Source: a virus. Taken from it: a stretch of DNA of 51,175 nucleotides. Shown piece after piece: positions 1,005 to 33,017 of this stretch. Location of the stretch: IMG/VR virus record IMGVR_UViG_3300044858_005064, positions 1-51,175 of that record; one strand, given 5' to 3'. The notes beneath the pieces are model-generated. The model saw nothing but the letters and a program-made list of their open reading frames with translations. It searched no databases and had not been told where the DNA came from. The position numbers and the translations under genes were made by a program. Each line of letters opens with the position of its first letter. The stretch's first letter is position 1.

Positions 1005-1006
1005 TC

Positions 1007-3454: not shown

Positions 3455-3460
3455 CACTAG

Positions 3461-3532: not shown

Positions 3533-3549
3533 CACACACGGAGAAAACC

Positions 3550-6246: not shown

Positions 6247-6274
6247 TTACAGTAACGGCTGTTGCTGTCTCCGG

Positions 6275-6299: not shown

Positions 6300-6319
6300 T
6301 ACTCACAGGAGATATACAC

Positions 6320-6697: not shown

Positions 6698-6699
6698 GC

Positions 6700-7104
6700 A
6701 TGCAACTGGAAGAGCTGGAAGCCAAAGTGAACGCGTCGCCCGCCCTGCGCGAGCTGCGCGATAAGTGCATGACAGAGATGTCTTTTCGCGTGGACAACTC
6801 TGCGCAGTTTGGCATTATTTTGATTCTCAGCATGATCTCTTTGGCCATTCAAATCGCCACGTACTGCAAGAACAAAAATAAAGCTGAACTGCTGCAGGAC
6901 ATGCGGAACATTCGGACCTTGCCGCCGCGGAAGCTGATGCGCTTGCGGCGCCGGGTGAACAAGCTGTGGCGCGAAGAATTTCCTGATTACCCGGTGAATC
7001 CAAGGGATCCGAATCCCATGCTGACGGTTATGTATGAATTGGGAGAAACTGCCGAGGACGCGGCGCTCAATGAGCTGCTGGCCCTCGCGAACGTACCGGA
7101 CTAA
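6700..7104 (+). CDS. single-pass membrane protein with basic domain
   Basis: 134 residues, start two bases after the previous stop, with GGGAG upstream. A helical N-terminal region of about 35 residues is followed by one hydrophobic helix (FGIILILSMISLAIQIATY, about residues 37-55) and a strongly basic segment (KNKNK; RKLMRLRRRVNKLWREEF). The C-terminus is acidic. No family is recognised. It appears paired with the upstream two-helix protein. Confidence 0.6.
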   Translation: MQLEELEAKVNASPALRELRDKCMTEMSFRVDNSAQFGIILILSMISLAIQIATYCKNKNKAELLQDMRNIRTLPPRKLMRLRRRVNKLWREEFPDYPVNPRDPNPMLTVMYELGETAEDAALNELLALANVPD

Positions 7105-7135
7105 TCTTTTCTTTTCGCTTGCAAGGACGCAACGC

Positions 7136-7966: not shown

Positions 7967-8003
7967 TACACTCAAGTAACCACTGTTTACGACTGGAGTT
8001 TTT

Positions 8004-8285
8004 ATGACATCTTTTCAATTGCTCTGCGCTGCGTTGTTTGTACTGGCGGTGTTGGTTGTGTATCGGGCACAGCTTGCGGCGGTTGTCCGTGGCTTGTTTC
8101 GCAAGAAGTCCGACGTGCCCGCAGTGCAGCCGTCGATCGCCGTGAATCTGGTGAACGATATTGTGTCGGTGACTAACTTGCGCGACCGCTTGGCCGCCGA
8201 GGGCTGCACTGAAGGTGTTGACGCGTGCACTGTGTTGCTGCGCGTGATTGTCGAGTACCAGCAACCGTCAAAGGGTGTTGTATGA
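8004..8285 (+). CDS. small single-pass membrane protein
   Basis: 93 residues, CTGGAG before the ATG. One N-terminal hydrophobic helix (residues 4-23) is followed by a basic boundary (RGLFRKKSD) and a short soluble domain with two Cys. Its stop overlaps the next start (ATGA at 8282-8285), so the two are probably made together. No family is recognised. Confidence 0.6.
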   Translation: MTSFQLLCAALFVLAVLVVYRAQLAAVVRGLFRKKSDVPAVQPSIAVNLVNDIVSVTNLRDRLAAEGCTEGVDACTVLLRVIVEYQQPSKGVV

Positions 8286-8737
8286 CCACAAAAAATTCTG
8301 GCGGTGTGTTAGTTGTTCTGGCCGGTATTTTACTGGCGGTGTCGCTGCTGTTCCCCAACGGACCGACCGTTGTGCGGCCAACTGTGTCGCCGTCTGCGCC
8401 GGTAACTCCGCAGGCTACTGATTCGGAGATTGTAAAGCTTCTCGCCGAAGCCGACGCGGCCGACAAGCTGCGTATTCGCGACGTGTACTCGGCGCTGAGC
8501 GTGATTTTGAAGCGCGACGCTGGTACGCGGGTCACAACTACGGAGCAGTGGGCTGATCTACAAGCTAATACGTTGCGGCTTGCGATTGACCAGCCCGGCA
8601 AGTATCCGGGACTGGATCGGGCGATTGAGGCTGTGTTTCTGGCCAAGGTAGGCACGGATGACGTGGTGCCCGGTACGCCGGAAACACAGGCCAAGTTAAT
8701 CGACGCGTGCGACACCATTGCGGCGTCCGCGCGATAG
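8282..8737 (+). CDS. membrane-anchored small protein
   Basis: 151 residues, start at ATG 8282 in an ATGA overlap with the preceding gene and AAGGG upstream. An N-terminal hydrophobic anchor (residues 8-25) is followed by a Pro/Thr/Val linker (PTVVRPTVSPSAPVTP) and a roughly 100-residue helical domain with conserved-looking EQWADLQANTLRLAID. The layout suggests an envelope-facing soluble domain tethered by a flexible linker. Function unknown. Confidence 0.6.
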   Translation: MTTKNSGGVLVVLAGILLAVSLLFPNGPTVVRPTVSPSAPVTPQATDSEIVKLLAEADAADKLRIRDVYSALSVILKRDAGTRVTTTEQWADLQANTLRLAIDQPGKYPGLDRAIEAVFLAKVGTDDVVPGTPETQAKLIDACDTIAASAR

Positions 8738-8747
8738 GAATTTTGAG

Positions 8748-9275
8748 ATGGCTGATACAGTGATTCTTCTTGCAGCAAAAGTAGGTTATACGCTGGTTTT
8801 GTTGTGGTATTTGGTGTACATCGCGCTTGCCGTGTACGCCGCGCTCTATCGCGGCTTAAACATATTTGTAAGTGTGCCGGTAGGTTTGAGAGTCGTTTTA
8901 CAAAGAGGTGAGACTATGGCGAATGTTCTGACATATCGTGTTTCTGTGAATGCCCCGGTTGACGGCGACGTCGTGTCGCGTGAGTTGACCGTGACGGTGA
9001 ACGGCGTTGAGTCATCGGTGGTGACGGCTGCCGGGAATGCAACTGACCTTGGTTCTGTGGACGTGCCGCAAGATTCGCTCGTTGTGCTTTCTTTGGTCGA
9101 CGTTGATGATTCCGGTAACAAGTCGGCGCCGGCGACGGTTGAGTTCGTTGCGCTCGACACGCTTGCCCCTGCGCAGCCCGGTGGTTTCAACGTGACACTG
9201 GTTAGCGAGAAGGTGGTGGATGACGCGCCGGTTGTTGAGGACGTCACACCTGAGACTGATACCACGAACGGTTGA
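8748..9275 (+). CDS. membrane-anchored Ig/Fn3-like beta domain protein with a likely internal start
   Basis: From ATG 8748 (AGGAA upstream) the product is 175 residues. A long hydrophobic N-terminus (about 40 residues) is followed by a beta-rich domain (residues 57-150) of Ig/Fn3 style, with alternating Val/Thr strands, SLVDVDDSGNKSAPATV and then PAQPGGF. A second in-frame ATG at 8916 is preceded by AGAGGTGA, the better ribosome binding site, and would give a 119-residue soluble domain without the anchor. Both forms may be made. The 8748-8915 part may alternatively be a separate small membrane protein fused by loss of a stop. Similar short VDVDDxGNxS domains occur in phage and planctomycete proteins; function unknown. 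Confidence 0.6.
   Translation: MADTVILLAAKVGYTLVLLWYLVYIALAVYAALYRGLNIFVSVPVGLRVVLQRGETMANVLTYRVSVNAPVDGDVVSRELTVTVNGVESSVVTAAGNATDLGSVDVPQDSLVVLSLVDVDDSGNKSAPATVEFVALDTLAPAQPGGFNVTLVSEKVVDDAPVVEDVTPETDTTNG
8905..8918 (+). promoter_or_regulatory. strong internal ribosome binding site
   Basis: AGAGGTGA followed by an ATG at 8916 lies inside the gene starting at 8748 and in the same frame. It is stronger than the site at the upstream start and argues for a second, shorter, soluble product. Confidence 0.5.
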
Positions 9276-9296
9276 TCTACATGCCGGAGACATGCC

Positions 9297-10322
9297 ATGG
9301 CCGCCAACGAGCATTTTTTTGAGAACGTCTATGACGTTGTGGCAGCGTATCAAACGGGCTTCGTGGGCGCATATAGCAGCCCCGAAGCTGCAGAAGCGTT
9401 GCGCGATCAGATCCAAGCCGCTGGTGGTATCCCCGACGGCGCCATGGCATGCTCGGCATATAAACTTGAGGAAACCGGCAAAGGCAAATTAAGCCTTCCG
9501 TTTCTTGAGATCCTGAAGCTCTATCCAGAGTCGTTGCCGGGTGGCGCGCAGGGCCGTGGCGATTGTGTTTCATGGTCGACGCGGAACGCCTGCTTGGGCA
9601 CCATGTGCTGCGAAATTACCAGCGGCGTGCCCGATCCGAACAGCAATAAGTTAGAAGGCGCCCCGGAAGTTTCTGATACTGCGCGACTCAACGGCGTCCT
9701 CAGCACGGAAGCGATTTACAATTGGCGCCGGCACGGCGGGGACGGCTGGAGCTGCGCTGAAGCCGCCCAAGTAGTGCTGAATGATTCCGGCCTGTGGTTG
9801 CGCAAAAAGTACGATGAAATCGACGTCGACTTCACGCAGTACAGCTCGCGCAATGCCGGGATTTATGGCGGTAAAACGCCCCCGGAGTCGTGGCGCGAGA
9901 TTGGTAAGAACCATCTTGTGCAAACTGTTACAGAAGTCGAAGAATACGAAGCGCTGCGTGATCTGTTAGCTAACGGGTACTGCGTGAGCAGCTGCGGCGG
10001 AGAAGGCTTCTCGTCGACACGTGACTTAAACGGCGTGAGTAATAGGCAGGGCGGGTGGGCCCACGCCCTCGCTTATCTGGCCGTGGACGACCGCGACGAA
10101 ATTAAAAAGCTGTATAACGGCCCGCTCGTGATGGTCCAAAACAGCTGGGGTTCGTGGAATGACGGAAGTCGGCGCATCTTTGGCACGACAGTAGATATTC
10201 CGGTGGGTTCGTTCTGGGCTCGCTGGGCAGATATCAAAAACCGTTATATGATTGCCATCTCTGGCGTGAACGGCTGGCCGCCGAAGAAGCTTAAGAATTA
10301 TGGCGCGCAGGGTAACATCTGA
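9297..10322 (+). CDS. papain-like (C1-fold) cysteine protease
   Basis: 341 residues, start ATG 9297 with GGAG upstream. All papain landmarks are in order: oxyanion Gln85 and nucleophile Cys90 in AQGRGDCVSWS, catalytic His256 in GGWAHALAYL, and Asn282 in VQNSWGSWNDG. A CC pair (104-105) and other Cys occur near the nucleophile. The first 80 residues form an N-terminal region with a VYDVVAAY opening and could be a prodomain or a substrate-recognition part. There is no signal peptide. Together with the MMP-like gene 1.3 kb upstream it gives this phage two unrelated proteases in one cluster. Possible roles are virion protein processing, degradation of host surface layers, or defence. The sequence does not decide. 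Confidence 0.82.
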   Translation: MAANEHFFENVYDVVAAYQTGFVGAYSSPEAAEALRDQIQAAGGIPDGAMACSAYKLEETGKGKLSLPFLEILKLYPESLPGGAQGRGDCVSWSTRNACLGTMCCEITSGVPDPNSNKLEGAPEVSDTARLNGVLSTEAIYNWRRHGGDGWSCAEAAQVVLNDSGLWLRKKYDEIDVDFTQYSSRNAGIYGGKTPPESWREIGKNHLVQTVTEVEEYEALRDLLANGYCVSSCGGEGFSSTRDLNGVSNRQGGWAHALAYLAVDDRDEIKKLYNGPLVMVQNSWGSWNDGSRRIFGTTVDIPVGSFWARWADIKNRYMIAISGVNGWPPKKLKNYGAQGNI

Positions 10323-10358
10323 GCGCAACGTGGTGCAAAAAGCGTAAAAGGACAACAC

Positions 10359-10727
10359 ATGTTTGAATGGCTTATGCTTCTTTTGACTCCGTGGGTGCCC
10401 AATGCCACACCGCCCCAAAAAGACTATATCGGTGTGGTCGCTGCAGAGGCTGCTTACTCTGCTTTACTTTCTGGCACGACGCCGGTAAAGCCTGCGCCGG
10501 CAAAGCCGATTGACCCAAACTGCCCGACATGCCACGGCACGGGCAAGGTCAAGACGGGCGACGGAATTAGCTGGACCAAGTGCCCGAAGTGCCAAGCGGA
10601 AACGCAGCAAATGCAATCGCTGCCGCCCGGGACATCGCCCAAAATGAAGTTACAGGTGCAGCCGCTGCCGGCGGTAAAAAGCAGCAGCAATTGTCCGACA
10701 GGCCAGTGTCCGCTTTCCCGTACATAA
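10359..10727 (+). CDS. small Cys-rich protein with DnaJ-type zinc motif
   Basis: 122 residues, AAGGA before the ATG. A hydrophobic N-terminus (residues 2-13) is followed by a Lys/Pro/Ala linker, then CPTCHGTGKVKTGDG and, 19 residues after the first motif, CPKC: a CxxCxGxG...CxxC zinc-binding unit like half of a DnaJ Cys-rich domain. A last CPTGQCPL sits near the C-terminus. Such units bind one zinc and often act in protein-protein contact. The specific role is unknown. Confidence 0.6.
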   Translation: MFEWLMLLLTPWVPNATPPQKDYIGVVAAEAAYSALLSGTTPVKPAPAKPIDPNCPTCHGTGKVKTGDGISWTKCPKCQAETQQMQSLPPGTSPKMKLQVQPLPAVKSSSNCPTGQCPLSRT

Positions 10728-10736
10728 GGGTGTTTT

Positions 10737-11231
10737 GTGTCTGATATTCAAGACAATTCCGGCAAGTGCTACAGTTATCGGGGTCTGAAGTTTTATGCCA
10801 AAAACGGGTTTATTTGCCTGCACGACGAAGAGACTGGTGAATTTTTCGTCCTGACCCGGAAAGAGTTTCTGCAGCGCGCGCAGGCTATTGGCGAAGAAGC
10901 CAAGCGGATGCGGTATATTGCCGCGGAAAACCCGAGTAAAGCCGCATGGCTTGCGGCGGATCGCGCTGATTTACAAAACGCGATTGATAACATGATCGCC
11001 TGCACCAAGGAAGCCAAAGAGCAGGGCGACCGGGATGACCCCGCTGTAGACGCGTGGTTTATGAGACATCGCCCGGGTCGAAAGAGTAAGATATCTTTGG
11101 CCAGCGCTGCTAACTTTAAGTCGGCAATGCCGGGCGCTTTACCACTTGGTAAGGACACCGGCAGGTACGCCACGCCTGACTTTACCGTTGGCGCGCCACC
11201 CAAGAAACTTATTCTGCCCGGAGATTATTGA
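10737..11231 (+). CDS. uncharacterised soluble phage protein
   Basis: 164 residues from GTG 10737, with AAGGG 7 bases upstream. The N-terminal half has a beta-hairpin-like region (YRGLKFYAKNGFICLHDEETG), the middle is helical and charged, and the C-terminal 50 residues are low-complexity with Pro/Gly and a PPKKLILPGDY end. It lies between the Cys-rich protein and a Gly-rich membrane protein, all closely spaced. No family is recognised. Confidence 0.6.
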   Translation: MSDIQDNSGKCYSYRGLKFYAKNGFICLHDEETGEFFVLTRKEFLQRAQAIGEEAKRMRYIAAENPSKAAWLAADRADLQNAIDNMIACTKEAKEQGDRDDPAVDAWFMRHRPGRKSKISLASAANFKSAMPGALPLGKDTGRYATPDFTVGAPPKKLILPGDY

Positions 11232-11232
11232 A

Positions 11233-11598
11233 ATGGATTTCAACAACGTTGACGAAAAAACAGCGTTCAAGATGGGCTTTTTGGCGCGTTGCTCTGAAGA
11301 GGGGCTGACCGGCGATGACCTCGACAGCCGTATTGAGTCAATTAAGCAGGCTGATCTTGCCAGTCTCTGGAACGGCGCCACGAATTTAGCTGGTGGAAGT
11401 GCCGGCTTCGCGCTCGGTTTGCCGGTGGCAGCCGGGCTGATTGGTGGCGGGTTGATCGGCACGGGCGCCGCGCACCTTACAGACCCAAAAATCGACGACG
11501 AGACGATCAAAGCGCAAGAATTGGCTAATACATATCGCGCTTATGCGAATCGGTTGCGTTCACGGAAGAAAGCACTGCAGTATCGTCCCGCGAGGTAA
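11233..11598 (+). CDS. small protein with glycine-rich membrane hairpin
   Basis: 121 residues; ATG 11233 is used because GGAG sits 10 bases upstream, while an earlier in-frame GTG does not. The N-terminal AFKMGFLARCSEEGLTGDDL is a compact helical unit. Residues 47-78 are a Gly/Ala-rich hydrophobic hairpin (AGGSAGFALGLPVAAGLIGGGL), and the rest is a charged helix ending in RSRKKALQYRP. It resembles in style the larger Gly-rich proteins at 5215 and 11956. A membrane or virion-interior role is inferred from this. Confidence 0.55.
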   Translation: MDFNNVDEKTAFKMGFLARCSEEGLTGDDLDSRIESIKQADLASLWNGATNLAGGSAGFALGLPVAAGLIGGGLIGTGAAHLTDPKIDDETIKAQELANTYRAYANRLRSRKKALQYRPAR

Positions 11599-11600
11599 TT

Positions 11601-11951
11601 GTGAGTCTGCGTAAATACCATGACGAGCTGGGCGGAGCCCAGCACGGAGATGCGCGTCTTCAGTGGCCCGGCACCCCAGACGGTTTTCCTGTTTTAAATA
11701 ATCCGTTTGCCAAACAGGATTTAAAGCAGGACGAACTGGACAATATCGACCTGCGTTACGACTTTAAGTCGCGCATGTTCGAATTGTGGGATCCGGCGCA
11801 CAAGGCGGATTTTGACGATGTAAATGATAAGATAGTGAACGGTTGGTACCGCCTGTTAAAGCGCGACAACCACTGGGACGAAGAGCACAAACATTTTATC
11901 GTATGGCTTGAATGGGCGCAGGTGTACGGCATGCTCCCGCCGAAGGTGTAA
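11601..11951 (+). CDS. uncharacterised phage protein
   Basis: 116 residues from GTG 11601, with GAGG close upstream. It is a soluble, aromatic-rich protein: LDNIDLRYDFKSRMFELWDPAHK, then GWYRLLKRDNHWDEEHKHF and IVWLEWAQVYGMLPPKV. There are no membrane segments. The high Trp/His/Asp content suggests a compact fold, but I do not recognise it. It begins two bases after the previous stop. Confidence 0.6.
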   Translation: MSLRKYHDELGGAQHGDARLQWPGTPDGFPVLNNPFAKQDLKQDELDNIDLRYDFKSRMFELWDPAHKADFDDVNDKIVNGWYRLLKRDNHWDEEHKHFIVWLEWAQVYGMLPPKV

Positions 11952-11955
11952 AATC

Positions 11956-13224
11956 ATGGCTGAACAAACGACTAAAGCAGCAATGGACGATTTCAGCGAC
12001 GACGCCGGCGGTGTGTTCCCCGCAGTGGCTAAGGCGCAAAGGCTGGGCCAGCCGAGCATGCTGGGCGAGTACAGCAACAGCTTCAAAAATATGTACGGCT
12101 TCCGCCCAGAAACGCCGTTTAAAGCTGTGGCTAATGCTGCATTAGATGCCGGCAAGTATCTCGGCAATCGGCTGGATAGCGCGACGGCGCCAGCCGGATA
12201 CAAACCACCAGTAGATACAACGCGTACTGGCGCTGTGGTCGATCAAGCCACAGCGTTTGCGAAAGGGCTGGTATCTCCAGAAGCGCAACAGGCTGTCGCC
12301 AACTCGGGGCCTGTGAAAGCTATCGCTGGAACTATAAATGCCGTAACAGATTCGGCGCCGCCTGTTGCAGCGCCGCCTACTACGGCTTCGTCGGCCAGTG
12401 CGCCATTTGCTGGCGCGGCAGCGTCGCCCGGTAGCACGTTTGGCAAGAACTTGCTGTTAACCGGCGGGCTTGGGCTGGGCGCCGTAGGCACATACTACCT
12501 GTTAAATAAATTGCTGTCTGGTCGGCGCAAGCGGCAGCAACACCAAAGCGTATACGGGCCGCCAAAGTTTGCGTCTGCGGGCGACATTATGGGCACTATT
12601 CAAGACGCGGCCGGCAAAGCGACCGATTATGTCGGCGACAAAGTCAACGCCGGTTTGGGCGCTATAAATCTCGGCGACTGGACATCCCCGCATCCAGACG
12701 GGCTGAGGGCAGGCGTGGCGCAAAAAACTATGGGTATTGGCGGCGTAGCCGCTGGTTTGGGCGGCACATATTTACTTGCGCAATATCTGGCGAAACGGCA
12801 AAAGCGCCAAAGCGAAAAAGACGATATCGAAAACGCGCGCAACGAATATTTGGCCGCGTTAACCGGCGTCAAAGCCGCGGCGCTTGACGAAGCGTACGAA
12901 AAATACGCGTCGCTAGCTGACATTGTGCAGGGTATAAAGAATTTTGGGCAGGGTGCCGCCGATTTCGGCCAGAAGTTACCGGGACGTCTTCAGACCGTTG
13001 GAGAAGACTACGGCGCGTTAGCGGCGCTGTCTGGACTTACTGGCGCAGCCCTTGGCGGGACGTACATGTACAACAAGACGCGTAATAACTCGCTGAGCGC
13101 CAATGCGCTCAAGGCGCAAGCACTGAAGGCGCGGATGCGGTCGCTTCCCGGTACGTGGATCGACCCTGAAGAGCTGGTAAAGGTTAAACAAATGGCTCTG
13201 GCTAACAACGCTGCAGCCACGTAA
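11956..13224 (+). CDS. large protein with three repeated glycine-rich membrane segments
   Basis: 422 residues from ATG 11956 (AAGGTG upstream). Three similar units are visible: TGGLGLGAVGTYYLLNKLL then GRRKRQ (about residue 170), GGVAAGLGGTYLLAQYLAKR then QKRQ (about 260), and LTGAALGGTYMYNKTR (about 360). Each is a Gly/Ala helix with a GTY motif followed by a basic patch. Between them lie Ala/Pro/Ser linkers and amphipathic helices (AGKATDYVGDKVNAGLG). The gene is directly upstream of the RNA polymerase. Repeated GxxxG-like helices with basic flanks would suit a virion-internal protein that inserts into the host membrane, perhaps escorting the polymerase. That is a hypothesis from layout only. 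Confidence 0.55.
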   Translation: MAEQTTKAAMDDFSDDAGGVFPAVAKAQRLGQPSMLGEYSNSFKNMYGFRPETPFKAVANAALDAGKYLGNRLDSATAPAGYKPPVDTTRTGAVVDQATAFAKGLVSPEAQQAVANSGPVKAIAGTINAVTDSAPPVAAPPTTASSASAPFAGAAASPGSTFGKNLLLTGGLGLGAVGTYYLLNKLLSGRRKRQQHQSVYGPPKFASAGDIMGTIQDAAGKATDYVGDKVNAGLGAINLGDWTSPHPDGLRAGVAQKTMGIGGVAAGLGGTYLLAQYLAKRQKRQSEKDDIENARNEYLAALTGVKAAALDEAYEKYASLADIVQGIKNFGQGAADFGQKLPGRLQTVGEDYGALAALSGLTGAALGGTYMYNKTRNNSLSANALKAQALKARMRSLPGTWIDPEELVKVKQMALANNAAAT

Positions 13225-13238: not shown

Positions 13239-16200
13239 ATGGCCGAGCCTTTTTCCGCACCACCCCTGCCTGCCCTTACGCAGCCGCCGCAACCCTTACA
13301 GCCGCGTGCATTCGGCGACGTGGCTGGGATGCGTAAAAATATCTTTGAGCGGGCATTGTCCAGCGCGCAGGGTATCGAGCCGATCAAGAATGATCTGTAC
13401 ACGTTGCACCTGCAAGATGTGGGCTACGCCGGCCCTGAGATGTATGCGAAGGCTGACCAGAAGAAAGCTGTGCTGACGCGCGGCTCGCTAGCGCGCAAGA
13501 TGCAGGGCACGTGGACGCTCATTGATAACAAAACCAATCAGCCTGTTGCGCAGCGCCGGGCCACGATTGCCAATGTGCCGTATCTTACAGACTCCGGCAC
13601 GTTTGTGAACAAGGGCGTTGAGTACACGTTGGCCCACCAGATGCGCCTACGCCCGGGCGTGTTTACCCGCGAGAAAGAGAACGGCGAGCTGGAAGCGCAC
13701 GTCAATACGCTTCCCGGTAAAGGTCGTTCACATAGGTATTATCTCGACCCGCAAACAGGTGTGTTCAAGATCCAGATTGGCCAAGCGCAGATTCCGCTTA
13801 TGCCCCTGTTGCGCCACATGGGCGTGCCCGAGCAAGCCATGCGGCAGGCGTGGGGCAACGAGATCACGGCTGTCAACATGGAGAAGGGCGACGCGGGCAC
13901 GCTGGATAAGCTGTATCAACGGCTTGTGAATAAACCAATCGCGGGCGCCACAGCTGAAGAAAAAGCCAAAGCTATTAACGAGGAGTTCGCCAAGACCGAA
14001 CTAGACGAAGACGTTACCCGACGCACACTTGGCACGTCGCACAAGCACATGACGCCCGACACGATTCTGGCGATCACCAAGAAGCTCATCGCGGTCAATC
14101 GCAAAGAAGCCGAATCAGACGACCGTGATAGCATGGCTTTTCAATCAGTACATGGTCCTGAAGATCTGCTGGCCGAGCGCTTCACGAAAGACAAGAAGAA
14201 CCTGCGGCAGCTCCTCTGGAAAGCCACGGCCAAGAAGTCACTAGACCATATTCCCAGCGGCGTATTTAACAAAGCTATCAGTGCCGCGCTGATCGGGTCT
14301 GGGCTGGGTTCAAGTCTGGAAGAAATTAACCCGGCTGAGATTTTTGATCACCAAACGCGCGTGACACGACTGGGCGAAGGCGGCATTGGTAGCTTGGATT
14401 CGGTACCGGCTGAGTCGCGTAGCGTCCAGCCAAGCCATCTGGGCTTTATTGACTACTTGCGCACGCCGGAGTGTTATGACGCTGAAACTGAAGTGATGAC
14501 GCGTAGCGGGTGGAAAAAATGGCCAGATGTAACAGACGCTGACGAGTTTGCTTGCTTAAACGCCGCCGGTGTGTTGTCATTCCACGTCGCAGAAAAACTA
14601 CACGCCGCGCATTACGCCGGAATAATGTACGGCGGCAACACAGGTAAAATAAATTATCTGGTTACGCCAAATCATCGCATGTATACGCGACCGTTGTACG
14701 CCGGCGCCGCGTATCGAATAGAGCTTGCGCCGCATATGCATTTAAAGTTTCGTGGCGTTCTATCCGGCGGCTTTGATGCGTACGAAGGCGACGCAGTAAC
14801 TACATTTGCTGTGCCGCAACCAGAGTACACCAGCAATAATCGGGCCGTAGTTGACGCAGTCGATATTGCCGATTGGGCTGAATTACTAGGTTGGTATTTA
14901 GGTGAAGGCAATTGCGTATATCGGCCGGATACGGCGCAATATCACGTAAAAATAACGCAGTGCCAGAAACACAACCCAGAAAATTGCGATCAAATTCGGG
15001 CGCTTTTAAACAAATTGCCGTTTAAGTGGGGTTATCACGGCAAAGCGTTTACTATTGCCACAAAACAAGTTGCTGCGTATTTCAAGCAATTTAACGGCAG
15101 CCCCAAGCGCTGGATTCCCGACGTTTTTTTTCGCGCGCCCAGTAATGCCCGTTTTCGGTTGTTTGACGCGCTGATGAAAAGCGAGGGCCGCAAAAACAAA
15201 CAGGGCGAGCGCACATGTTTTTGCACATCAAGTCAGCAACTTGCTCGCGATTTTGAGCGGTTAGCGTTTGGGCTCGGGTATTCGTCGCGCACTGTGTTTG
15301 AAAAAGACAGTCGGCCGCACTCATCGACAGGTGGCTGCTGGATTGTGCATGTGCATAAACAAAATAGCCATCAGGTTTTACCGCGGGCGGCACGAGACGG
15401 GCGTTGTCACTATTTCACACAGCAGTATTCCGGCATGGTGTACTGCGCCACGGTACCGGGCGGTTTGTTGTACGTTCGGCGGCACGGCAATTGCGGTTTT
15501 TGGTGCGGTAACAGCGGCAAGGTCGGTGTTGACATGCGCTTTGCCGGCGGCGCAATGAAGGGCCAAGACGGCAAGATTTATACGCCCGTGGTCGACACCA
15601 AGACAGGCCAGACCACGTATAAAACCCCGCAGGAGCTGGCTGACATTCCGCTGGTGTTTCCCGGCGAGGACAAGCATGACCTGCCGATGGTGTCGGCACT
15701 AGTCGGCGGCAAGATTAAGTACGTGCCGCGCGATCAGGCCCAATACAGCCTGCCCAACATGGATAACACGTTCTCGGCCCTGTCGAACATGGTGCCGATG
15801 AAGACCATGATCAAGGGCCATCGTGTGATCATGGGTTCGCGCATGTTTACGCAGGCGCTGCCCCTCGTGAATGCCGAGGCGCCGCTTGTGCAGTCTGGGC
15901 AGGCGCATAATCCAAGCAGTTCTTATGAAGATGTCATGGGAGAAAAGCTGGGCGCTGTCAGGGCGCAGTCGGCCGGCCGTGTCGAGTCCGTGACGCCCGA
16001 CAGTATTGTGTGGCGCGACAAAGACGGCAATAAGCAAGTGACAGATCTGTATAACGACATGCCGTTCAACCGGAAAACGTTCTGGACGCAGACGCCCGCT
16101 GTGCAGGCCGGAGACTTTATCAAGCCGGGGCAGCTGCTGGCGCACTCTAACTTTACAGACAAGCAGGGCACCGCGGCGCTGGGCATGAACTTGCGTACGG

Positions 16201-18683
16201 CGTATCTGCCGTTTAGAGGCAAGAACTACGAAGACGCTATTGTGATCTCACAGTCTGCCGCCAAGCGCTTGACCAGCGAGCACATGTATCAGCACGAAGC
16301 CGAGTGGGACGCTAACACGCACGTCGGCAAAAAGGCGTTCGTGAGTCTGTTCCCGGGCGAGTATGACAAAAAGCTGCTGGATAACTTCGACGACAAGGGC
16401 GCCATCAAGAAGGGCATGGAAGTTAACTACGGCGATCCGTTAGTGCTCGTGGCCAAGAAGCGCGACGCTGTCTATGGCAAAGTCCATCGTGGCCGCGGCG
16501 GTAACTTTGCCAACGAGACAGTAACGTGGGACCACCATTCGCCCGGCATCGTGACTGACGTCGAGCACACGGACAAGGGCGTCAGCGTTGTTGTGAAGAA
16601 CAAGTCTCAAATGGAAGTGGGCGACAAGCTCACAGGCCGGTTTGGTGACAAGGGCGTGATTGCTGAAGTCGTCCCAGACCACCAGATGCCGCACGACAAA
16701 GACGGGAATCCTTACGAGGCGCTGGTCAGTCCGCTGGGTTTGATTAGCCGCGTGAATCCAGCTCAAGTTGTCGAGGCGGCCTTGGGCAAAGTGGCGGCCA
16801 AAACTGGTCAGCCGTACAAGATCCCCGACTTTGATAACAGCAAAGACCTGATTGATTTTGCGCAGAAAGAACTTGAGAAGCACGGTTTGTCAGACACTGA
16901 GCACGTCACGGACCCTGAGACGGGCCGGAATATTCCGGGTGTGCTGACCGGCAATCGGTTCTTCATGAAGCTGCACCACACCGCTGAGTCCAAGGGCCAA
17001 GGCCGCTCGACCGGTGGCTATACCGCTGAAGGCACGCCGGCCAAGGGCGGTAGCGAAGGCGCCAAGCGCATCGGCATGTTGGATCTGGGTGCGCTCTTAT
17101 CTCACGGCGCCGGCCAAGTCATTCGCGACGCCAAGATGGTGCGCGGCCAAGCCAACCCCGAATACTGGTCGCAGTTCATGGCGGGCTATTCGCCACCGCT
17201 GCCCAAGGTGCCGCACGTGTACAACAAGTTCGTCAATCAGCTTAAAGCCGCGGGTATCAACACTGTGCGCGAGGGCACGAAGACCCACATTATGGCGATG
17301 ACGGACAAGGATGTGGACTCGCTGGCCGGTGATCGTGAAATCAAGAACAGCGAGACGGTCGACTGGAAAGGCTTGATGAAGCCCAAAGCCGGCGGGCTGT
17401 TTGACGAAACAATGACGGGCGGCCACGGCGGGAATCGGTGGTCAAAGATAACATTACACGAGCCGATGCCTAACCCCGTCATGGAAGACCCCATTCGCCG
17501 TGTGTTGGGTATTACCGAGAAGCAATTCCGTGGCGTCCTTGCCGGCCAAGCCACACTGTTCGACAAGACCGGCCCAGAGGCAATTCAAGCAGCGCTGGCC
17601 AAGATTAATCTTCCCAAAGCGATTGAGCAGACCCGCCAAGATATCAAATCAGGTCGCAAGACCATTCGTGACGCCGCTGTCCGCAAGCTGGGTTTCCTGA
17701 AGAGCGCAGAAGCTACCGGCGTCCACCCGAAAGACTGGATGATGAGTAAGGTGGCTGTCTTGCCGCCGTTGTTCAGGCCCGTAACGACGATGGGTTCTAA
17801 GAAACTCCCGCTGGTAGACGACGCGAACTATCTTTACAAAGAGTTACTCGACGCCAACCACGTGTTGCGCGAAACATCCGGCGCCTTTGATAGCTATGGC
17901 GACGAGCGGCTGGGCCTGTATGACGCCGTGAAAGCCGTCAGCGGTTTGGGCGACCCGCAGCAGCCCAAAAACGTTGAGCGGAACGTTAAGGGTTTCTTGT
18001 CTAAGATTTTCGGTAGTTCGCCCAAGTACGGCACGGTTCAGCGCAAGCTGCTGAGTTCCACCGTGGACTTGGTGGGTCGGGCGGTGATTACGCCCAACCC
18101 GGATCTGGACATGGATCAGGTGGCACTGCCCGAAGAGAAGGCATGGGATATTTACAAGCCGTTCGTGGTGCGCGGGTTGGTGCGACGAGGAATGCCCAGA
18201 ATGCAGGCGCTAGACGCTGTTGAGGGCAAAAACAAAGCTGCGTTTGAAGAGCTGCACACCCAGATGAACAGCCGGCCGATTGTGATTAATCGCGCGCCCG
18301 TGTTGCACCGTTACGGCCTGATGGCGTTTTATCCGCGCCTGACCAAGAACAAGGTCATGGAAGTAAACCCTGTGATTACCAAGGGTTTTGGCGCCGACTT
18401 TGACGGAGACGCCATGCAGTATCACGTGCCCAGCACTGACGACGCTGCCAAAGAAGCTATTCACAAGATGCTGCCCAGCAAAAATCTGTTCTCGGCGGCT
18501 TCGTTTAAAGCGCATTACGTGCCGAACAAAGACTATCAAACTGGGTTGTATGTGGCGTCTAGCCGAACAAATCACAAATCTAAACCCCACGTATATCGCA
18601 CCAAGCGCGACGCTATGGCGGCGTACAAGCGTGGTGAAATAGGCGTAGACACCCAAGTGCATATTGTGGAAGATAATACGTAG
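13239..18683 (+). CDS. RNA polymerase beta fused to N-terminal half of beta-prime, intein-interrupted
   Basis: 1814 residues; 1467 after removal of the 347-residue intein (412-758). Beta landmarks in order: VPYLTDSGTF (113 on), FIDYLRTPE/SGKVGVDMRF across the intein (bacterial TPEGPNIGL region), GSRMFTQALPLVNAEAPL (about 866), LPFRGKNYEDAIVIS, GDKLTGRFGDKGV (about 1128), MKLHHTAESKGQGRSTGGY and a clamp end near 1345. Beta-prime begins at about 1365 (GLMKPKAGGLFDE) without the Cys-rich zinc ribbon, then LPPLFRP, VDLVGRAVIT, INRAPVLHR (about 1684) and the catalytic GADFDGDAM, with Mg2+ ligands Asp1720, Asp1722 and Asp1724. It stops shortly after this domain. Bridge helix and trigger loop are in the protein at 19572. 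No alpha, omega or sigma is seen in the window. Confidence 0.95.
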   Translation: MAEPFSAPPLPALTQPPQPLQPRAFGDVAGMRKNIFERALSSAQGIEPIKNDLYTLHLQDVGYAGPEMYAKADQKKAVLTRGSLARKMQGTWTLIDNKTNQPVAQRRATIANVPYLTDSGTFVNKGVEYTLAHQMRLRPGVFTREKENGELEAHVNTLPGKGRSHRYYLDPQTGVFKIQIGQAQIPLMPLLRHMGVPEQAMRQAWGNEITAVNMEKGDAGTLDKLYQRLVNKPIAGATAEEKAKAINEEFAKTELDEDVTRRTLGTSHKHMTPDTILAITKKLIAVNRKEAESDDRDSMAFQSVHGPEDLLAERFTKDKKNLRQLLWKATAKKSLDHIPSGVFNKAISAALIGSGLGSSLEEINPAEIFDHQTRVTRLGEGGIGSLDSVPAESRSVQPSHLGFIDYLRTPECYDAETEVMTRSGWKKWPDVTDADEFACLNAAGVLSFHVAEKLHAAHYAGIMYGGNTGKINYLVTPNHRMYTRPLYAGAAYRIELAPHMHLKFRGVLSGGFDAYEGDAVTTFAVPQPEYTSNNRAVVDAVDIADWAELLGWYLGEGNCVYRPDTAQYHVKITQCQKHNPENCDQIRALLNKLPFKWGYHGKAFTIATKQVAAYFKQFNGSPKRWIPDVFFRAPSNARFRLFDALMKSEGRKNKQGERTCFCTSSQQLARDFERLAFGLGYSSRTVFEKDSRPHSSTGGCWIVHVHKQNSHQVLPRAARDGRCHYFTQQYSGMVYCATVPGGLLYVRRHGNCGFWCGNSGKVGVDMRFAGGAMKGQDGKIYTPVVDTKTGQTTYKTPQELADIPLVFPGEDKHDLPMVSALVGGKIKYVPRDQAQYSLPNMDNTFSALSNMVPMKTMIKGHRVIMGSRMFTQALPLVNAEAPLVQSGQAHNPSSSYEDVMGEKLGAVRAQSAGRVESVTPDSIVWRDKDGNKQVTDLYNDMPFNRKTFWTQTPAVQAGDFIKPGQLLAHSNFTDKQGTAALGMNLRTAYLPFRGKNYEDAIVISQSAAKRLTSEHMYQHEAEWDANTHVGKKAFVSLFPGEYDKKLLDNFDDKGAIKKGMEVNYGDPLVLVAKKRDAVYGKVHRGRGGNFANETVTWDHHSPGIVTDVEHTDKGVSVVVKNKSQMEVGDKLTGRFGDKGVIAEVVPDHQMPHDKDGNPYEALVSPLGLISRVNPAQVVEAALGKVAAKTGQPYKIPDFDNSKDLIDFAQKELEKHGLSDTEHVTDPETGRNIPGVLTGNRFFMKLHHTAESKGQGRSTGGYTAEGTPAKGGSEGAKRIGMLDLGALLSHGAGQVIRDAKMVRGQANPEYWSQFMAGYSPPLPKVPHVYNKFVNQLKAAGINTVREGTKTHIMAMTDKDVDSLAGDREIKNSETVDWKGLMKPKAGGLFDETMTGGHGGNRWSKITLHEPMPNPVMEDPIRRVLGITEKQFRGVLAGQATLFDKTGPEAIQAALAKINLPKAIEQTRQDIKSGRKTIRDAAVRKLGFLKSAEATGVHPKDWMMSKVAVLPPLFRPVTTMGSKKLPLVDDANYLYKELLDANHVLRETSGAFDSYGDERLGLYDAVKAVSGLGDPQQPKNVERNVKGFLSKIFGSSPKYGTVQRKLLSSTVDLVGRAVITPNPDLDMDQVALPEEKAWDIYKPFVVRGLVRRGMPRMQALDAVEGKNKAAFEELHTQMNSRPIVINRAPVLHRYGLMAFYPRLTKNKVMEVNPVITKGFGADFDGDAMQYHVPSTDDAAKEAIHKMLPSKNLFSAASFKAHYVPNKDYQTGLYVASSRTNHKSKPHVYRTKRDAMAAYKRGEIGVDTQVHIVEDNT
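14472..15512 (+). mobile_element. intein with LAGLIDADG homing endonuclease in beta
   Basis: 347 in-frame codons between TPE and Ser759. The splice N-terminus is Cys412 (CYDAETEV, block A). Block B shows VTPNHRMY. Block F is VYCATVPGGLLYVRR, and block G ends FWCGN before Ser+1. The penultimate residue is Gly rather than His, as in a group of phage inteins. The DOD endonuclease has two LAGLIDADG-like helices, LLGWYLGEGN (548-557) and FDALMKSEGR (642-651), with acidic residues at the ends, so it may be active. Base composition differs: 25/60 G+C in each of 14641-14700, 14941-15000 and 15001-15060, against 36/60 in 13441-13500 and 16261-16320. This points to separate acquisition. Confidence 0.92.
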
Positions 18684-18704
18684 CTCGGATAACACGGAGG
18701 TTTT

Positions 18705-19349
18705 ATGTACACGATTAACCCTGAACTGCTTGCTCTGGCGCAGATGCGCCTCGAAAAAAGTGCCGTTGTTCCGCCCGGCGGCGACCCCTCGATGGGTGGC
18801 GGCGCGCCTCCAATGGACCCCGCGGCGATGGGCGCGGCGCCTCCTGTAGATCCGGCCGCAATGCAGGGCGGTGCGCCGATGGACCCCGCGGCCATGGGCA
18901 TGGCTCCTCCCGCCGCCCCAGCCGCTCCGGCCGCGCCGGCAGCGCCTGCTGCGCCCGGCCAAGCGGCGCCGCAGAAGCTCAAGCCTGAGCAGATGATGAA
19001 TATGCTCGACTACAGGCTGTATAACATGCAGCAGCAGCTTACGGCGATTATGAACGCGCTGGGCGTGCAAGTGCCGCCCGAGTCGTTGGTTCTGCCGCCG
19101 GGTTCGCCGGGCGCACCGCCGGCTGAGTCTGCGTTGCCGGGTGGCCCAATGGCCCCGCCGCCGCAAGCCCCCGGCGCGCCCAATGCGCCTCAAGCGCCGG
19201 GCGGCCCGCTTCCTCCGGGCGGCCCAATGGACCCTAGCGCACCGCCTGCCGATCCTGCCGCGATGAAGGGCGCGTCGGCGCACGATCTGCATGTAAAGGC
19301 CAGCGCTGTTGCTATCCTGCAGCGGAGCTTGAATAAGTATGCGGGTTAA
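18705..19349 (+). CDS. Pro/Ala/Gly-rich low-complexity protein lying in the beta-prime split
   Basis: 214 residues with CACGGAGGTTTT before the ATG. The short helical N-terminus (NPELLALAQMRLEKSA) is followed by repeats of MDPAAMG/APP, a run of PAAPAAP units and further GGP/APP stretches. A central helical island (KLKPEQMMNMLDYRLYNMQQQL) and a helical C-terminus (ASAVAILQRSLNKYAG) break the low complexity. The string PVDPAAM..GAP also occurs near the end of the scaffold-like protein at 29611, hinting that both are virion proteins. It occupies the gap between the two polymerase genes. Function unknown. Confidence 0.6.
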   Translation: MYTINPELLALAQMRLEKSAVVPPGGDPSMGGGAPPMDPAAMGAAPPVDPAAMQGGAPMDPAAMGMAPPAAPAAPAAPAAPAAPGQAAPQKLKPEQMMNMLDYRLYNMQQQLTAIMNALGVQVPPESLVLPPGSPGAPPAESALPGGPMAPPPQAPGAPNAPQAPGGPLPPGGPMDPSAPPADPAAMKGASAHDLHVKASAVAILQRSLNKYAG

Positions 19350-19545
19350 AACCCACCATAACTTGCAGCCGGCAGAGCAACTGGCACACACCGTTGTGAT
19401 CGAAGATGACAATGGAAACCCAATCTTTGTCGCGCTGCATATGTCTGAGGGAATTGTGTATTCAGACGCCAGCCAAAAAGATTTCCCGGGTATTTTGAAA
19501 CTCGCGGGGATTGAAACAGTACCTGTGGTTACGTTTATTGACTGA
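19339..19545 (+). CDS. small beta-rich protein between polymerase genes
   Basis: 68 residues; its start overlaps the previous gene by 11 bases. It has three or four short strands (HTVVIEDDNGNPIFVALH, IVYSDAS, VPVVTFID), no Cys and no membrane segment. It is the second of two small genes in the split of beta-prime. No family is recognised. It could be a polymerase accessory subunit, judged only by position. Confidence 0.5.
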   Translation: MRVKTHHNLQPAEQLAHTVVIEDDNGNPIFVALHMSEGIVYSDASQKDFPGILKLAGIETVPVVTFID

Positions 19546-19571
19546 ACACTGCTTAGCGCCGGATACGCTCT

Positions 19572-21446
19572 ATGTTGAAAACAACGCTAGGTCAGTTGCT
19601 GGTTAATGACGCGCTGCCGGAAGACATGCGGGACTATACGCGCGTTTTGAACAAGAAAAACACGGGCGCGCTGGCGACAGAATTAGCCAAGAAATACCCG
19701 GAAAAATACCGCGAAGTCATGAAAAAGCTTCATGACGTGGCGCTTGATTCCGCGTACACAACAAACGGCTTATCGTTCGGCCTGAAAGACGTGCGGCCGA
19801 GTTTGGCGGCGCAGCACACGCAGCTGAAAGTAAAACAGCAGTTGCGGCAGATTCTGGCGGATAGGGGCCTCAACGACGAGCAGCGCAATGCGAAAATACT
19901 CAAGCTGGCGTCGGAAGCGCAGCGGCAGCTTGTGGATGATGTGTATAACGAGGCCCACGGGCACGATAATCCGTTAGCGCACCAGATTGCTGGATCCGGC
20001 GTGGGCAACAAGTTCCAGCTGAACTCGATCCTTGGCGCCGACATGCAGTATCTCGACCACCGCGGCGAGCCTATTCCAATTCCTGTTATGCGCGGATACG
20101 CCCAAGGCTTAACGCCCGTGGAGTACTTTGCCGGCGCGTTCGGCACCCGCAAGGGTGTAATTGACCTGAAGACCGCCACAGCTGACGCCGGGTTCTACGG
20201 CAAGCAGCTTACGCAGATGGCGCACAGACTGCTTGTCACGGACCAAGACGAGCAAGACCAAGAGCGCCTAGCCAACGCCCACGAGCGCGGTTTTCCCACG
20301 GACATAGACGACCCCGACAACGAGGGCGCAATGCTGTCGCGACCCGTAGGGCCGTACAAGCGCAATACTGTGCTGACGCCCAAAATCATGCGCGACATCA
20401 AAGAGATGGGCGTTAAAGATATCTTAGTGCGCAGCCCAATTGTCGGCGGCCCAGAAGACGGCGGTGTCTATGCAAATGACGTCGGCTATCGCGAAAAAGG
20501 CCATCTGCCGCCTGTCGGAGACTATGTGGGTATTGCAGCCGCGCAGGCGCTTTCAGAGCCTGTCACACAAAGTCAGATTAGCTCCAAGCACTCTGGCGGC
20601 GTCGGTGGCGCAGGCGGGATTTCTGGTTTTAAAGCGCTCAACGCGCTTGTACAGGTGCCGAAGAAGTTTCCCGGCGGGGCAACACACGCTCAGGCAGATG
20701 GGCATGTCCAAGAAGTGCGTCCTGCGCCACAGGGCGGCTTTTATGTGCAAATTAACGGTCAAGACCATTATGTCCCAACGGACCGCGGCGTTACGGTTAA
20801 AAAGGGTGACGAGATCGAAGCTGGTGACACAATTTCGGAGGGTATGCCGAACCCAGCTGAAATTGTCCGCCATAAAGGCGTGGGTGAAGGCCGCCGCTAT
20901 TTTGTCCAAGCGATGCGGCAGGTGATGCAAAATAGCGGTATTACAGCCCACCGCAGAAACATTGAGTTGCTTTCGCGCGGCTTGATTAACCACGTGCGCA
21001 TGACGGACGAGCACGGCGACTACTCCCCTGACGATATCGTGCCGTATTCGATGTTGGAGCGAAACTGGACGCCGCGCGACGGGAGCGTAGCCGGCGCGCC
21101 GAGTACGCTTTCTGGGCACTATCTGGAACAGCCCGCGCTGCATTATTCCGTCGGCACGCCAATCACAAAAAACGTTGTTAAAACCTTGGGCCAGCACGGC
21201 ATTACAAATATTCAAGCGCACAGAGAGCCGCCGCCGTTTCAGCCCGAAATGGTACGCGGCATGTCGAACATCTCCAACGATCCTGACTGGATGACCCGCA
21301 TGCTCGGGTCGTACCAAGAAAAAGGCCTGCTGAACAGCGTACACCGCGGTTTAACGAGCAATACCGCCGGTAGCAGTTATGTTCCGGCGCTGGCACAAGG
21401 CGAAAACTTTGGCGTGACCGGAACGACAAGTGGGTGGAAGCCCTGA
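19572..21446 (+). CDS. RNA polymerase beta-prime C-terminal half
   Basis: 624 residues, weak Shine-Dalgarno. It starts at the segment equivalent to bacterial TTVGR (here TTLGQLLVNDALPEDM), then LDSAYTTNGLSFGLKDV. Next come the bridge-helix/trigger-loop region GVGNKFQLNSILGADMQYL, IPIPVMRGYAQGLTPVEYF, GAFGTRKGVIDLKTATADAG (about 183-205) and YGKQLTQMAHRLLVT. A later PVGDYVGIAAAQALSEPVTQ matches the bacterial VG..A.QSIGEPGTQLT helix. The C-terminus has GVGEGRRYFVQAMRQVMQNSG and HRRNIELLSRGLINHV, as in the bacterial C-terminal part. Together with the 13239 gene it completes a catalytic core. It must associate non-covalently with that protein, since no intein halves are present at the break. Confidence 0.95.
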   Translation: MLKTTLGQLLVNDALPEDMRDYTRVLNKKNTGALATELAKKYPEKYREVMKKLHDVALDSAYTTNGLSFGLKDVRPSLAAQHTQLKVKQQLRQILADRGLNDEQRNAKILKLASEAQRQLVDDVYNEAHGHDNPLAHQIAGSGVGNKFQLNSILGADMQYLDHRGEPIPIPVMRGYAQGLTPVEYFAGAFGTRKGVIDLKTATADAGFYGKQLTQMAHRLLVTDQDEQDQERLANAHERGFPTDIDDPDNEGAMLSRPVGPYKRNTVLTPKIMRDIKEMGVKDILVRSPIVGGPEDGGVYANDVGYREKGHLPPVGDYVGIAAAQALSEPVTQSQISSKHSGGVGGAGGISGFKALNALVQVPKKFPGGATHAQADGHVQEVRPAPQGGFYVQINGQDHYVPTDRGVTVKKGDEIEAGDTISEGMPNPAEIVRHKGVGEGRRYFVQAMRQVMQNSGITAHRRNIELLSRGLINHVRMTDEHGDYSPDDIVPYSMLERNWTPRDGSVAGAPSTLSGHYLEQPALHYSVGTPITKNVVKTLGQHGITNIQAHREPPPFQPEMVRGMSNISNDPDWMTRMLGSYQEKGLLNSVHRGLTSNTAGSSYVPALAQGENFGVTGTTSGWKP

Positions 21447-32070: not shown

Positions 32071-32086
32071 GGAACATGGAGGTTCC
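32071..32086 (+). promoter_or_regulatory. hairpin with Shine-Dalgarno in ATGGAG loop (copy 3)
   Basis: GGAAC (32071-32075), loop ATGGAG (32076-32081), GTTCC (32082-32086): five perfect pairs, four bases before the capsid start. It is the third copy with an identical hexaloop. Confidence 0.55.
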
Positions 32087-32090
32087 CACA

Positions 32091-33017
32091 ATGCCCACTC
32101 AGCAAGAAGTACAACTGCTCAACGAAACACTGTTTGAGCAGCTCGATACCCCCGGCATGCAGAAGCAGGCCATCGACGCAGTTAACGACTTCACGCGCAC
32201 CAAGATGCGTGAAGACGGTTTCTACCGTCGGATTATGCCCCCGCTGACCATCACCAACGACGAGCTGGACCGTCAGGTTGACACTGACAAGCCCGTCAAG
32301 GTTGTGGACAAGGAGCCCGATTCCCCGGCGGCTGTGTCGCTCCCGTTTGCGACACTCCCGATCAACTTCTACATCCGTGGCCCGCGTTACCGCGTCATGT
32401 TTGACCGGATCGTGTCGCCCCGCGCTGTGAAGGACGTCGACGAACTCCGTACGTATGTCATCGACATTCGTCAGGTGCTCAGCGACAACATGATCAAGGA
32501 CATGCTCGCTGAGGAAGACGGCAAGTTTATTGCCGCCTTCAACGCCGTGCTGCCGACTGCTGGTGTTGCTAACGTCGCTAGCGGCGTTGTGCAGTACGAG
32601 GAGATCAGCGGCGGCATCACCCGTGAGACGCTTGTTGACGCCCTGAAGGTTATGCCCCGCACGCCGTCGCACTTCGAAGTGGAGACTTGCTTGGTGAACA
32701 ACATCACCATCAAGGAACTGCTGAAGTTCGGCCGCGACGAAATGGGCGGCGACTTCTCGCAGGACATCATCAAGAACGGTTGGGCGGAGACTAATTTCCT
32801 CAACACTCGCTGGATTGTTACGATCAAGCGCGATCTTGTGCCTGACGACTCGTTGTTCATGTTCGCGTCGCCGAAGTTCATCGGCAAGAACTACGAGCTT
32901 GAGCCCACCACGATGTACATCCGTCGTGAGGCGTTCATGCTGGAGTACTTTGCCTACCAGACGCAAGGCGGCTCGTTCGGTCACACGAACGGTCTGGCTC
33001 GCGTTGACTTCAAGTGA
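32091..33017 (+). CDS. major capsid protein
   Basis: 308 residues from ATG 32091; the ATG at 32076 is part of the ribosome site (ATGGAGG) and is not used. Features of HK97-fold capsids of large phages: an N-terminal helical arm (QEVQLLNETLFEQLDTPG), DFTRTKMREDGFYRRIMPPL, a long central helix (VIDIRQVLSDNMIKDML), then a strand/helix alternation with EVETCLVNNITIKELLKFG and FMFASPKFIGKNYELE. The C-terminus is FMLEYFAYQTQGG then NGLARVDF. Position after protease and scaffold-like genes, before neck genes, and the strong ribosome site, support this. The 308-residue length is modest for this fold. No separate delta domain is obvious. Confidence 0.8.
   Translation: MPTQQEVQLLNETLFEQLDTPGMQKQAIDAVNDFTRTKMREDGFYRRIMPPLTITNDELDRQVDTDKPVKVVDKEPDSPAAVSLPFATLPINFYIRGPRYRVMFDRIVSPRAVKDVDELRTYVIDIRQVLSDNMIKDMLAEEDGKFIAAFNAVLPTAGVANVASGVVQYEEISGGITRETLVDALKVMPRTPSHFEVETCLVNNITIKELLKFGRDEMGGDFSQDIIKNGWAETNFLNTRWIVTIKRDLVPDDSLFMFASPKFIGKNYELEPTTMYIRREAFMLEYFAYQTQGGSFGHTNGLARVDFK

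What the first reader, a model, noticed from the sequence alone, without database searches (positions are those of the whole stretch)
13239..21446. Phage RNA polymerase: beta fused to half of beta-prime, second half separate
The first protein joins all beta blocks to the DFDGD-bearing first half of beta-prime without a stop. The bridge helix and trigger loop are encoded by a second gene 0.9 kb downstream. Full beta/beta-prime fusions are known (Helicobacter, Wolbachia) and jumbo phages of the phiKZ kind split both subunits. A beta plus N-beta-prime fusion with a free C-beta-prime is an arrangement I cannot place. Similarity to bacterial motifs (GDKLTGRFGDKGV, INRAPVLHR, GADFDGDAM) is far higher than in phiKZ-type enzymes.
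Basis: partly seen in the sequence, partly recalled or inferred. Interest (0 to 1): 0.85.

Follow-up and report, generated by a model that had tools for sequence, protein, structure and literature searches.

The report
Half-fused, half-split phage RNA polymerase
This uncultured phage encodes a bacterial-type RNA polymerase as one large protein, joining all of one core subunit to half of the other, plus a small protein carrying the missing half; many related phages share the layout, and their relatives also show fully joined and further split versions, so this is probably a fused enzyme later cut in two and perhaps carried inside the virus particle.

Summary
ORF 13239-18683 (1814 aa) is complete beta joined to the DFDGD half of beta-prime; ORF 19572-21446 (624 aa) is the rest of beta-prime. 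It is not an assembly artefact: 73 of 99 non-redundant related loci (95% identity) show it, as do the isolates Salmonella phage Arash and Vibrio phage D69 at about 31% identity. Spliced, the fusion is 1467 aa.

The half fusion has a likely explanation. The same clade contains full beta/beta-prime fusions (17 loci), joined exactly where the window is split, and a nested group split once more. On a bacteria-rooted tree the cheapest history is separate genes, full fusion, then a split after the DFDGD barrel. Catalytic residues are intact; the N-terminal zinc domain is lost; alpha and omega were not found; relatives' long contigs carry a divergent sigma.

Arash's fusion, C-half and orthologous sigma were all detected by published mass spectrometry of its particles, and gene order matches, so a virion-packaged enzyme is the best inference. 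The arrangement exists in deposited genomes, but I found no paper describing it. New variant of a known kind.

The parts
13239..18683 (+). RNA polymerase beta / N-half beta-prime fusion gene (1814 aa with intein, 1467 aa spliced)
   Evidence: ORF; Pfam/NCBIfam; alignment to E. coli rpoB/rpoC
13239..14471 (+). N-extein: N-terminal part of beta up to TPE (E. coli P564-E565)
   Evidence: alignment A1 and E. coli map
14472..15512 (+). LAGLIDADG intein, residues 412-758 (Cys1 ... CGN followed by Ser+1)
   Evidence: empty site seamless in most relatives; homologues at the same site in L089-L091, L130, L133, L166; profile hits solved inteins 7qsu, 2cw7 at E 2e-8; full-length match inside the P1201 thymidylate synthase gene
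15513..17274 (+). C-terminal part of beta (contains GDKLTGRFGDKG with both catalytic lysines); end approximate
   Evidence: AF2 model of the betaC-beta-prime-N piece, mean pLDDT 84.9; Foldseek match to Thermus beta
17275..18680 (+). N-half of beta-prime, without the N-terminal zinc-binding domain; start approximate
18396..18410 (+). catalytic DFDGD motif
   Evidence: sequence; aspartates invariant in the 13 aligned phage pairs
18705..19349 (+). intervening Pro/Ala-rich gene (214 aa) between the two RNAP genes
   Evidence: ORF; tblastn matches in 140 fetched loci, low-complexity filter off; no Rfam intron match in the gap
19572..21446 (+). C-half of beta-prime (bridge helix, trigger loop), 624 aa, separate gene
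   Evidence: PDB profile match to bacterial beta-prime E 4e-72
20109..20249 (+). bridge-helix region (limits approximate)
   Evidence: alignment to E. coli beta-prime
20589..20591 (+). trigger-loop histidine (E. coli H936 equivalent)
   Evidence: invariant in the 13 aligned sequences
32076..33017 (+). major capsid protein homologue; places the RNAP genes upstream in the structural module, in the same order as in phage Arash
   Evidence: phmmer to Arash gp226 E 2e-35

Best explanation
The two genes encode the catalytic core of a complete bacterial-type RNA polymerase that works as two chains: beta plus the N-half of beta-prime in cis, and the C-half of beta-prime in trans. The intein in the first chain must splice itself out before the enzyme can form. 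The ancestral form was most likely a single full-length beta/beta-prime fusion, as still seen in sister phages; one gene break in the loop after the DFDGD barrel separated the bridge-helix/trigger-loop half. The enzyme probably needs no alpha or omega, uses a small phage sigma, is made with the structural proteins, is packaged in the virion and injected to transcribe early genes. Shown: architecture, conservation, intein by sequence, conserved catalytic residues, sigma gene in relatives' long contigs, alternative architectures in the clade. Inferred: activity, splicing, assembly, packaging in this particular phage, presence of the sigma gene in this phage (its known contigs end before the expected position), early-gene role, order of events.
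For: Architecture and completeness. Same arrangement in 73 of 99 non-redundant loci and in Arash and D69. Full fusions joined at the split point, usually with 0-5 linker residues (up to about 18 in several), in 17 non-redundant loci. Tree: phage clade 100, split forms together 99, full fusions together 88, doubly split forms nested beside Arash 100; counting events gives 2 if the full fusion is ancestral versus 3 if the half fusion is. Aspartate triad, both beta lysines, R1106, beta-prime R425 and trigger-loop His invariant in 13 aligned phage pairs. Sigma: all 23 IMG/VR records of 127 kb or more in the first set, and Vibrio D69, carry a homologue of Arash gp10; records of all three architectures do too; Sigma70 region 3 above cut-off. 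One RNAP per genome, omega and alpha not found. Arash particle MS: gp206 3516 spectra, gp216 1210, sigma gp10 467 (PMC10585845), about 2.3, 2.0 and 2.0 per residue by my arithmetic. Structural-module synteny with Arash. Intein.
Against: No biochemistry was found for any member. The Arash authors allow that the enzymes may be abundant carry-over. Window and Arash proteins are only about 31% identical. The trigger-loop arginine (E. coli R933) is Ser and M932 is Ile, and both beta-prime zinc sites are lost, so activity is not assured. The root between full fusions and split forms hangs on a long branch to five bacterial-type outgroups, and full fusions are monophyletic rather than paraphyletic, so the order of fusion and split is not proven. 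The window and its identical 73-kb contig contain no sigma. The single-sequence AF2 model of the intein was uninformative (pLDDT 36).
Confidence: 0.72

Rival explanations
1. The same two-chain enzyme, but not packaged: a non-virion RNAP made during infection for middle or late genes, encoded beside structural genes only because it transcribes them.
For: No virion proteomics for this phage; high expression could leave RNAP in particle preparations, as the Arash authors note.
Against: Only one RNAP per genome; Arash gp206 is the most counted particle protein, 128 unique peptides, with C-half and sigma at similar counts per residue.
Confidence: 0.2
2. The half fusion is primary: beta fused to an already split beta-prime (for example cyanobacterial-type rpoC1), and the full fusions arose later by re-joining.
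For: Full fusions form one clade (UFBoot 88), so the root does not by itself make them ancestral; cyanobacteria and phiKZ-type enzymes are split nearby.
Against: Needs one more event; the cyanobacterial split lies about 20 residues further downstream. Cyanobacteria were not in the tree, so a cyanobacterial origin was not directly tested.
Confidence: 0.2
3. The two halves are one protein after all, joined after transcription or translation by an intron, frameshift or split intein.
For: Inteins are frequent in these RNAP genes; Vibrio phage D181 has a homing endonuclease gene inside the fusion gene.
Against: Stop codon and separate start are conserved and the gap grows to 5.3 kb in relatives; no Rfam intron in the gap; neither gene end carries an intein half by sequence.
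Confidence: 0.03
4. A decaying or sequencing-broken rpoB/rpoC pair.
For: One locus (L054, same contig as L152) is indeed fragmented.
Against: Intact frames and conserved catalytic residues across the clade.
Confidence: 0.02

Closest known systems
RNAP of Salmonella phage Arash (gp206 + gp216; OQ632216, PMC10585845) and Vibrio phage D69
   Same: Same half fusion and separate C-half, same split point, same sigma family, same structural-gene order; particle MS in Arash.
   Different: 31% identity; no intein at this site; C-half zinc cysteines largely kept; annotated simply as beta and beta-prime, the fusion not remarked on in the paper.
[quoted passage not shown]
   Same: Bacterial-like phage RNAP branching apart from cellular enzymes; uncultured tailed phages; RNAP beside structural genes.
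   Different: Defined by beta and beta-prime hits of at least 800 aa with an NADxDGD motif, with capsids of PF07068; here fused/split, GADFDGD, and no PF07068 hit (that search had no positive control). Overlap with their contigs could not be checked.
phiKZ/AR9-type jumbo phage vRNAP and nvRNAP (PMC7598289)
   Same: beta-prime split after the DFDGD barrel; no alpha/omega; a virion form exists.
   Different: Their beta is also split, sequences are far more divergent, and two enzymes per phage are usual.
crAss-like phage RNAP (fused beta/beta-prime; described in PMC7481178)
   Same: Sister phages here also have a single-chain fusion.
   Different: The crAss enzyme is not recognisable by COG0085/COG0086 models; the window's enzyme is, and is split.
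Helicobacter/Wolbachia rpoBC fusions; cyanobacterial and plastid rpoC1/rpoC2
   Same: Each shows one half of the arrangement (fusion, or a beta-prime split near this place).
   Different: Neither combines both (own knowledge).
Insert in the thymidylate synthase gene of Corynebacterium phage P1201 (intein, own knowledge)
   Same: Full-length match to the window intein, 25% identity.
   Different: Host gene is thymidylate synthase; here RNAP beta.

Membership tests
Arash-type half-fused RNAP (proposed here) | beta and N-beta-prime in one ORF, C-beta-prime separate, break at E. coli beta-prime about 555-575 | tested here: met
Arash-type half-fused RNAP (proposed here) | homologue of the Arash particle sigma gp10 in the genome | tested here: inconclusive
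   present in the relatives' long records, but the window and its identical contig are fragments that end first
mReC | beta and beta-prime each matched at 800 aa or more (as separate proteins, on my reading) | tested here: not met
   fusion plus 624-aa C-half; criteria
mReC | NADxDGD motif | tested here: not met
   GADFDGD in window; NADFDGD in only some relatives
mReC | capsid protein PF07068 | tested here: inconclusive
   no hit in the window MCP or in 14 records; Arash and D69 MCP match PF05065 weakly; no positive control rang
mReC | clade apart from bacteria | tested here: met
   UFBoot 100, against five bacterial-type outgroups only
phiKZ-type RNAP | beta split into two proteins | tested here: not met
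phiKZ-type RNAP | beta-prime split after the DPBB | tested here: met
Full beta/beta-prime fusion (Helicobacter type) | whole beta-prime in the same chain | tested here: not met
   met only in sister phages
Class 1 LAGLIDADG intein | Cys at position 1, TxxH in block B, terminal Asn, Ser/Thr/Cys at +1 | tested here: met
   C1, TPNH, CGN followed by Ser; penultimate residue is Gly not His
Class 1 LAGLIDADG intein | seamless empty alleles in relatives | tested here: met
Class 1 LAGLIDADG intein | protein splicing activity | not testable with these tools
   needs expression
Virion RNA polymerase | present in and injected from particles | not testable with these tools
   only published MS of the relative Arash

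The most novel reading that the evidence does not exclude
A large, mostly uncultured phage clade carries a virion-packaged sigma-dependent RNA polymerase whose two core subunits were first fused into one chain and then re-split once and twice, with inteins repeatedly invading catalytic regions. It would be a lineage in which the steps between single-chain and fragmented multi-subunit RNAP are preserved, showing that split phage polymerases can be derived rather than primitive.
Probability: 0.5. Interest if true: 0.8.

Novelty: new variant of a known kind. Interest (0 to 1): 0.62.

Why it matters
Whether fragmented phage RNA polymerases are relics from before the last universal ancestor or cut-down cellular enzymes is debated; Iyer and colleagues argued that the phiKZ-type ones were not derived by splitting (PMC7824862). 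Here one alignable clade contains full fusion, single split and double split, which makes the question testable by phylogeny and shows that chain number is labile. It also offers a compact bacterial-like enzyme, apparently without alpha, omega or the beta-prime zinc domain, with a small dedicated sigma, as a model for minimal multi-subunit RNAP and for injected transcription machinery. Arash, a cultured relative, makes experiments possible now.

Tried and rejected
Assembly error: rejected by conserved relatives. Intron or trans-splicing rejoining the halves: no Rfam hit, intervening gene, no intein halves at the ends. Alpha and omega subunits: one weak sub-threshold alpha hit and no omega hit. 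Host assignment through GTDB genomes: the scan with the C-half alignment returned no confirmed relative, so the host is unknown. AF2 of the intein from one sequence: uninformative. First IQ-TREE run with 73 taxa timed out and was replaced by FastTree and a 36-taxon IQ-TREE. BFVD fold search gave only distant viral RNAPs. Sigma region 2 and region 4 Pfam models miss or barely reach the sigma in the close group; it was found by its repeated ORF and an own profile. Archaeal A'/A'' split considered and rejected: it lies between bridge helix and trigger loop.
Full report
OBSERVATION. The window is a 51,175-base virus record. ORF 13239-18683 (1814 aa) and ORF 19572-21446 (624 aa) are intact on the + strand. 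Pfam and NCBIfam identify RNA polymerase beta and the first half of beta-prime in the former and the second half of beta-prime in the latter. The bacterial rpoC model ends at position 535 of 1147 in the first protein and resumes at 548 in the second. Aligned to E. coli, beta is complete to its last residues, followed by a short linker and beta-prime from near its N-terminus. The N-terminal zinc-binding domain (C70/72/85/88) is absent. The split falls at E. coli beta-prime 555-575, right before TTVG.

INTEIN. Residues 412-758 interrupt beta after TPE (E. coli P564-E565). Most of the first set of relatives lack the segment, with a seamless site. Homologues sit at the same site in L089-L091 (75% identical), L130, L133 and L166. 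A six-member profile hits solved inteins 7qsu, 7qss and 2cw7 at E 2e-8 to 3e-8, LAGLIDADG_3 is found in all six, below its cut-off in the window member, and the segment matches the thymidylate synthase gene of phage P1201 over its full length. Block A, TPNH, LLGWYLGEG, CGN and Ser+1 are present. L133 has Met at +1, so that copy may not splice. The mature fusion would be 1467 aa.

CONSERVATION. The first IMG/VR scan returned 64 loci, and a scan with the fusion alignment found 405 related stretches, 80 kept. In these two sets loci with enough sequence carry the half fusion and a separate C-half, with a gap of 0.8-5.3 kb, apart from a few interrupted by inteins, insertions or frameshifts. Among isolates, Salmonella phage Arash (gp206 1525 aa, gp216 606 aa) and Vibrio phage D69 (1527 and 609 aa) have it too at about 32% and 25% identity for the two proteins.

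THREE ARCHITECTURES. A wider scan analysed with profiles gave, among 99 loci non-redundant at 95%: 73 half fusions, 17 full single-ORF fusions of about 2050-2600 aa (the longest with insertions), and 5 loci split again inside N-beta-prime (L174, L178, L183, L186, L187); one further locus put in that class by the script (L064) and three others are interrupted by inteins, insertions or frameshifts. In full fusions the sequence runs straight through the window's split point, usually with 0-5 linker residues and up to about 18 in several loci. IQ-TREE on 36 taxa: phage clade 100, half plus double-split forms 99, full fusions 88, double-split forms nested beside Arash 100; FastTree on 73 taxa has the same topology at this level but supports the half-plus-double-split group weakly (0.46). 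From separate bacterial genes, full fusion as ancestor needs two events, half fusion as ancestor three. I therefore favour fusion first, split later; the long outgroup branch and the monophyly of full fusions leave the alternative open.

FUNCTION. The DFDGD aspartates, beta K1065, K1073, R1106, beta-prime R425 and trigger-loop H936 are invariant in 13 aligned pairs; R933 is Ser in the window and M932 Ile. An AF2 model of the beta-C/beta-prime-N piece, 37 sequences, has mean pLDDT 84.9, with the junction modelled as a short hairpin; Foldseek aligns its beta part to Thermus RNAP beta. No omega and no convincing alpha was found, and one RNAP per genome. A small sigma-70 family protein is present in all 23 IMG/VR records of 127 kb or more in the first set and in D69, also in full-fusion and double-split phages; its profile matches SigA/RpoS and members match Sigma70 region 3 above cut-off. 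Its member in Arash is gp10 (24% identical to the first member). The window and its 73-kb twin lack it; in L003's contig it lies about 35 kb beyond the C-half, which would be past the window's end (inference from contig coordinates).

PACKAGING. In published Arash particle proteomics gp206 has 3516 spectra, gp216 1210 and sigma gp10 467 (PMC10585845), about 2.3, 2.0 and 2.0 per residue by my division; gp196, a second sigma annotated in Arash, is not mentioned in the text searched. The window matches Arash in order: C-half, gp218, gp222, capsid gp226, gp233, gp234, gp236. I infer a virion RNAP for early genes, as known for phiKZ-type phages; the Arash authors themselves note that carry-over is possible.

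COMPARISON. mReC phages are the nearest named group, but their published criteria are not met or not testable here. phiKZ-type enzymes share the beta-prime split region but also split beta. Searches of the open paper library found no description of this arrangement or of inteins in it; subscription papers and the mReC supplements were not available, so priority is not proven.

VERDICT. Real and widespread, unnoted in the papers I could read, and explained best as a formerly full fusion re-split into two chains. New variant of a known kind; interest 0.62.

Noticed in passing
L057 fusion 2-3556 and C-half 5537-12283: About five inteins in one RNA polymerase (two in the fusion, the first cut by the contig end; three in the C-half, including around the trigger loop). 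Other sites occupied in L052, L053, L064, L138, L153.
   Followed up: partly
L069 (Vibrio phage D181) 4298-5247: A homing endonuclease gene interrupts the fusion gene at about residue 515, possibly an intron; D148 looks the same from the search table.
   Followed up: no
C-half genes of L045, L057, L060, L064, L147, L159: C-beta-prime carries long C-terminal extensions of roughly 300-750 aa of unknown function.
   Followed up: no
L074-L083 sigma N-termini; L014, L024, L036 fusion N-termini: Both sigma and some RNAP fusions start with a similar SIL(G) motif, perhaps a packaging tag; not tested.
   Followed up: no
L071 11892-12596 and L072 20657-21694: Arash has two sigma factors; gp10 is reported in particles, gp196 was not found in the paper text searched.
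   Followed up: partly
L133 fusion about residue 744: Intein at the same site but with Met at +1, possibly unable to splice.
   Followed up: no
window 3461-3533 and 7034-7966: tRNA-Asn gene and an endolysin-like gene upstream of the RNAP.
   Followed up: no
L252 (Vibrio phage Va2), L253 (Rhizobium phage RHph_Y65), L251 (Yersinia phage GN1): Other isolated phages with unsplit beta-prime-like genes; Yersinia GN1 has separate adjacent beta and beta-prime.
   Followed up: no
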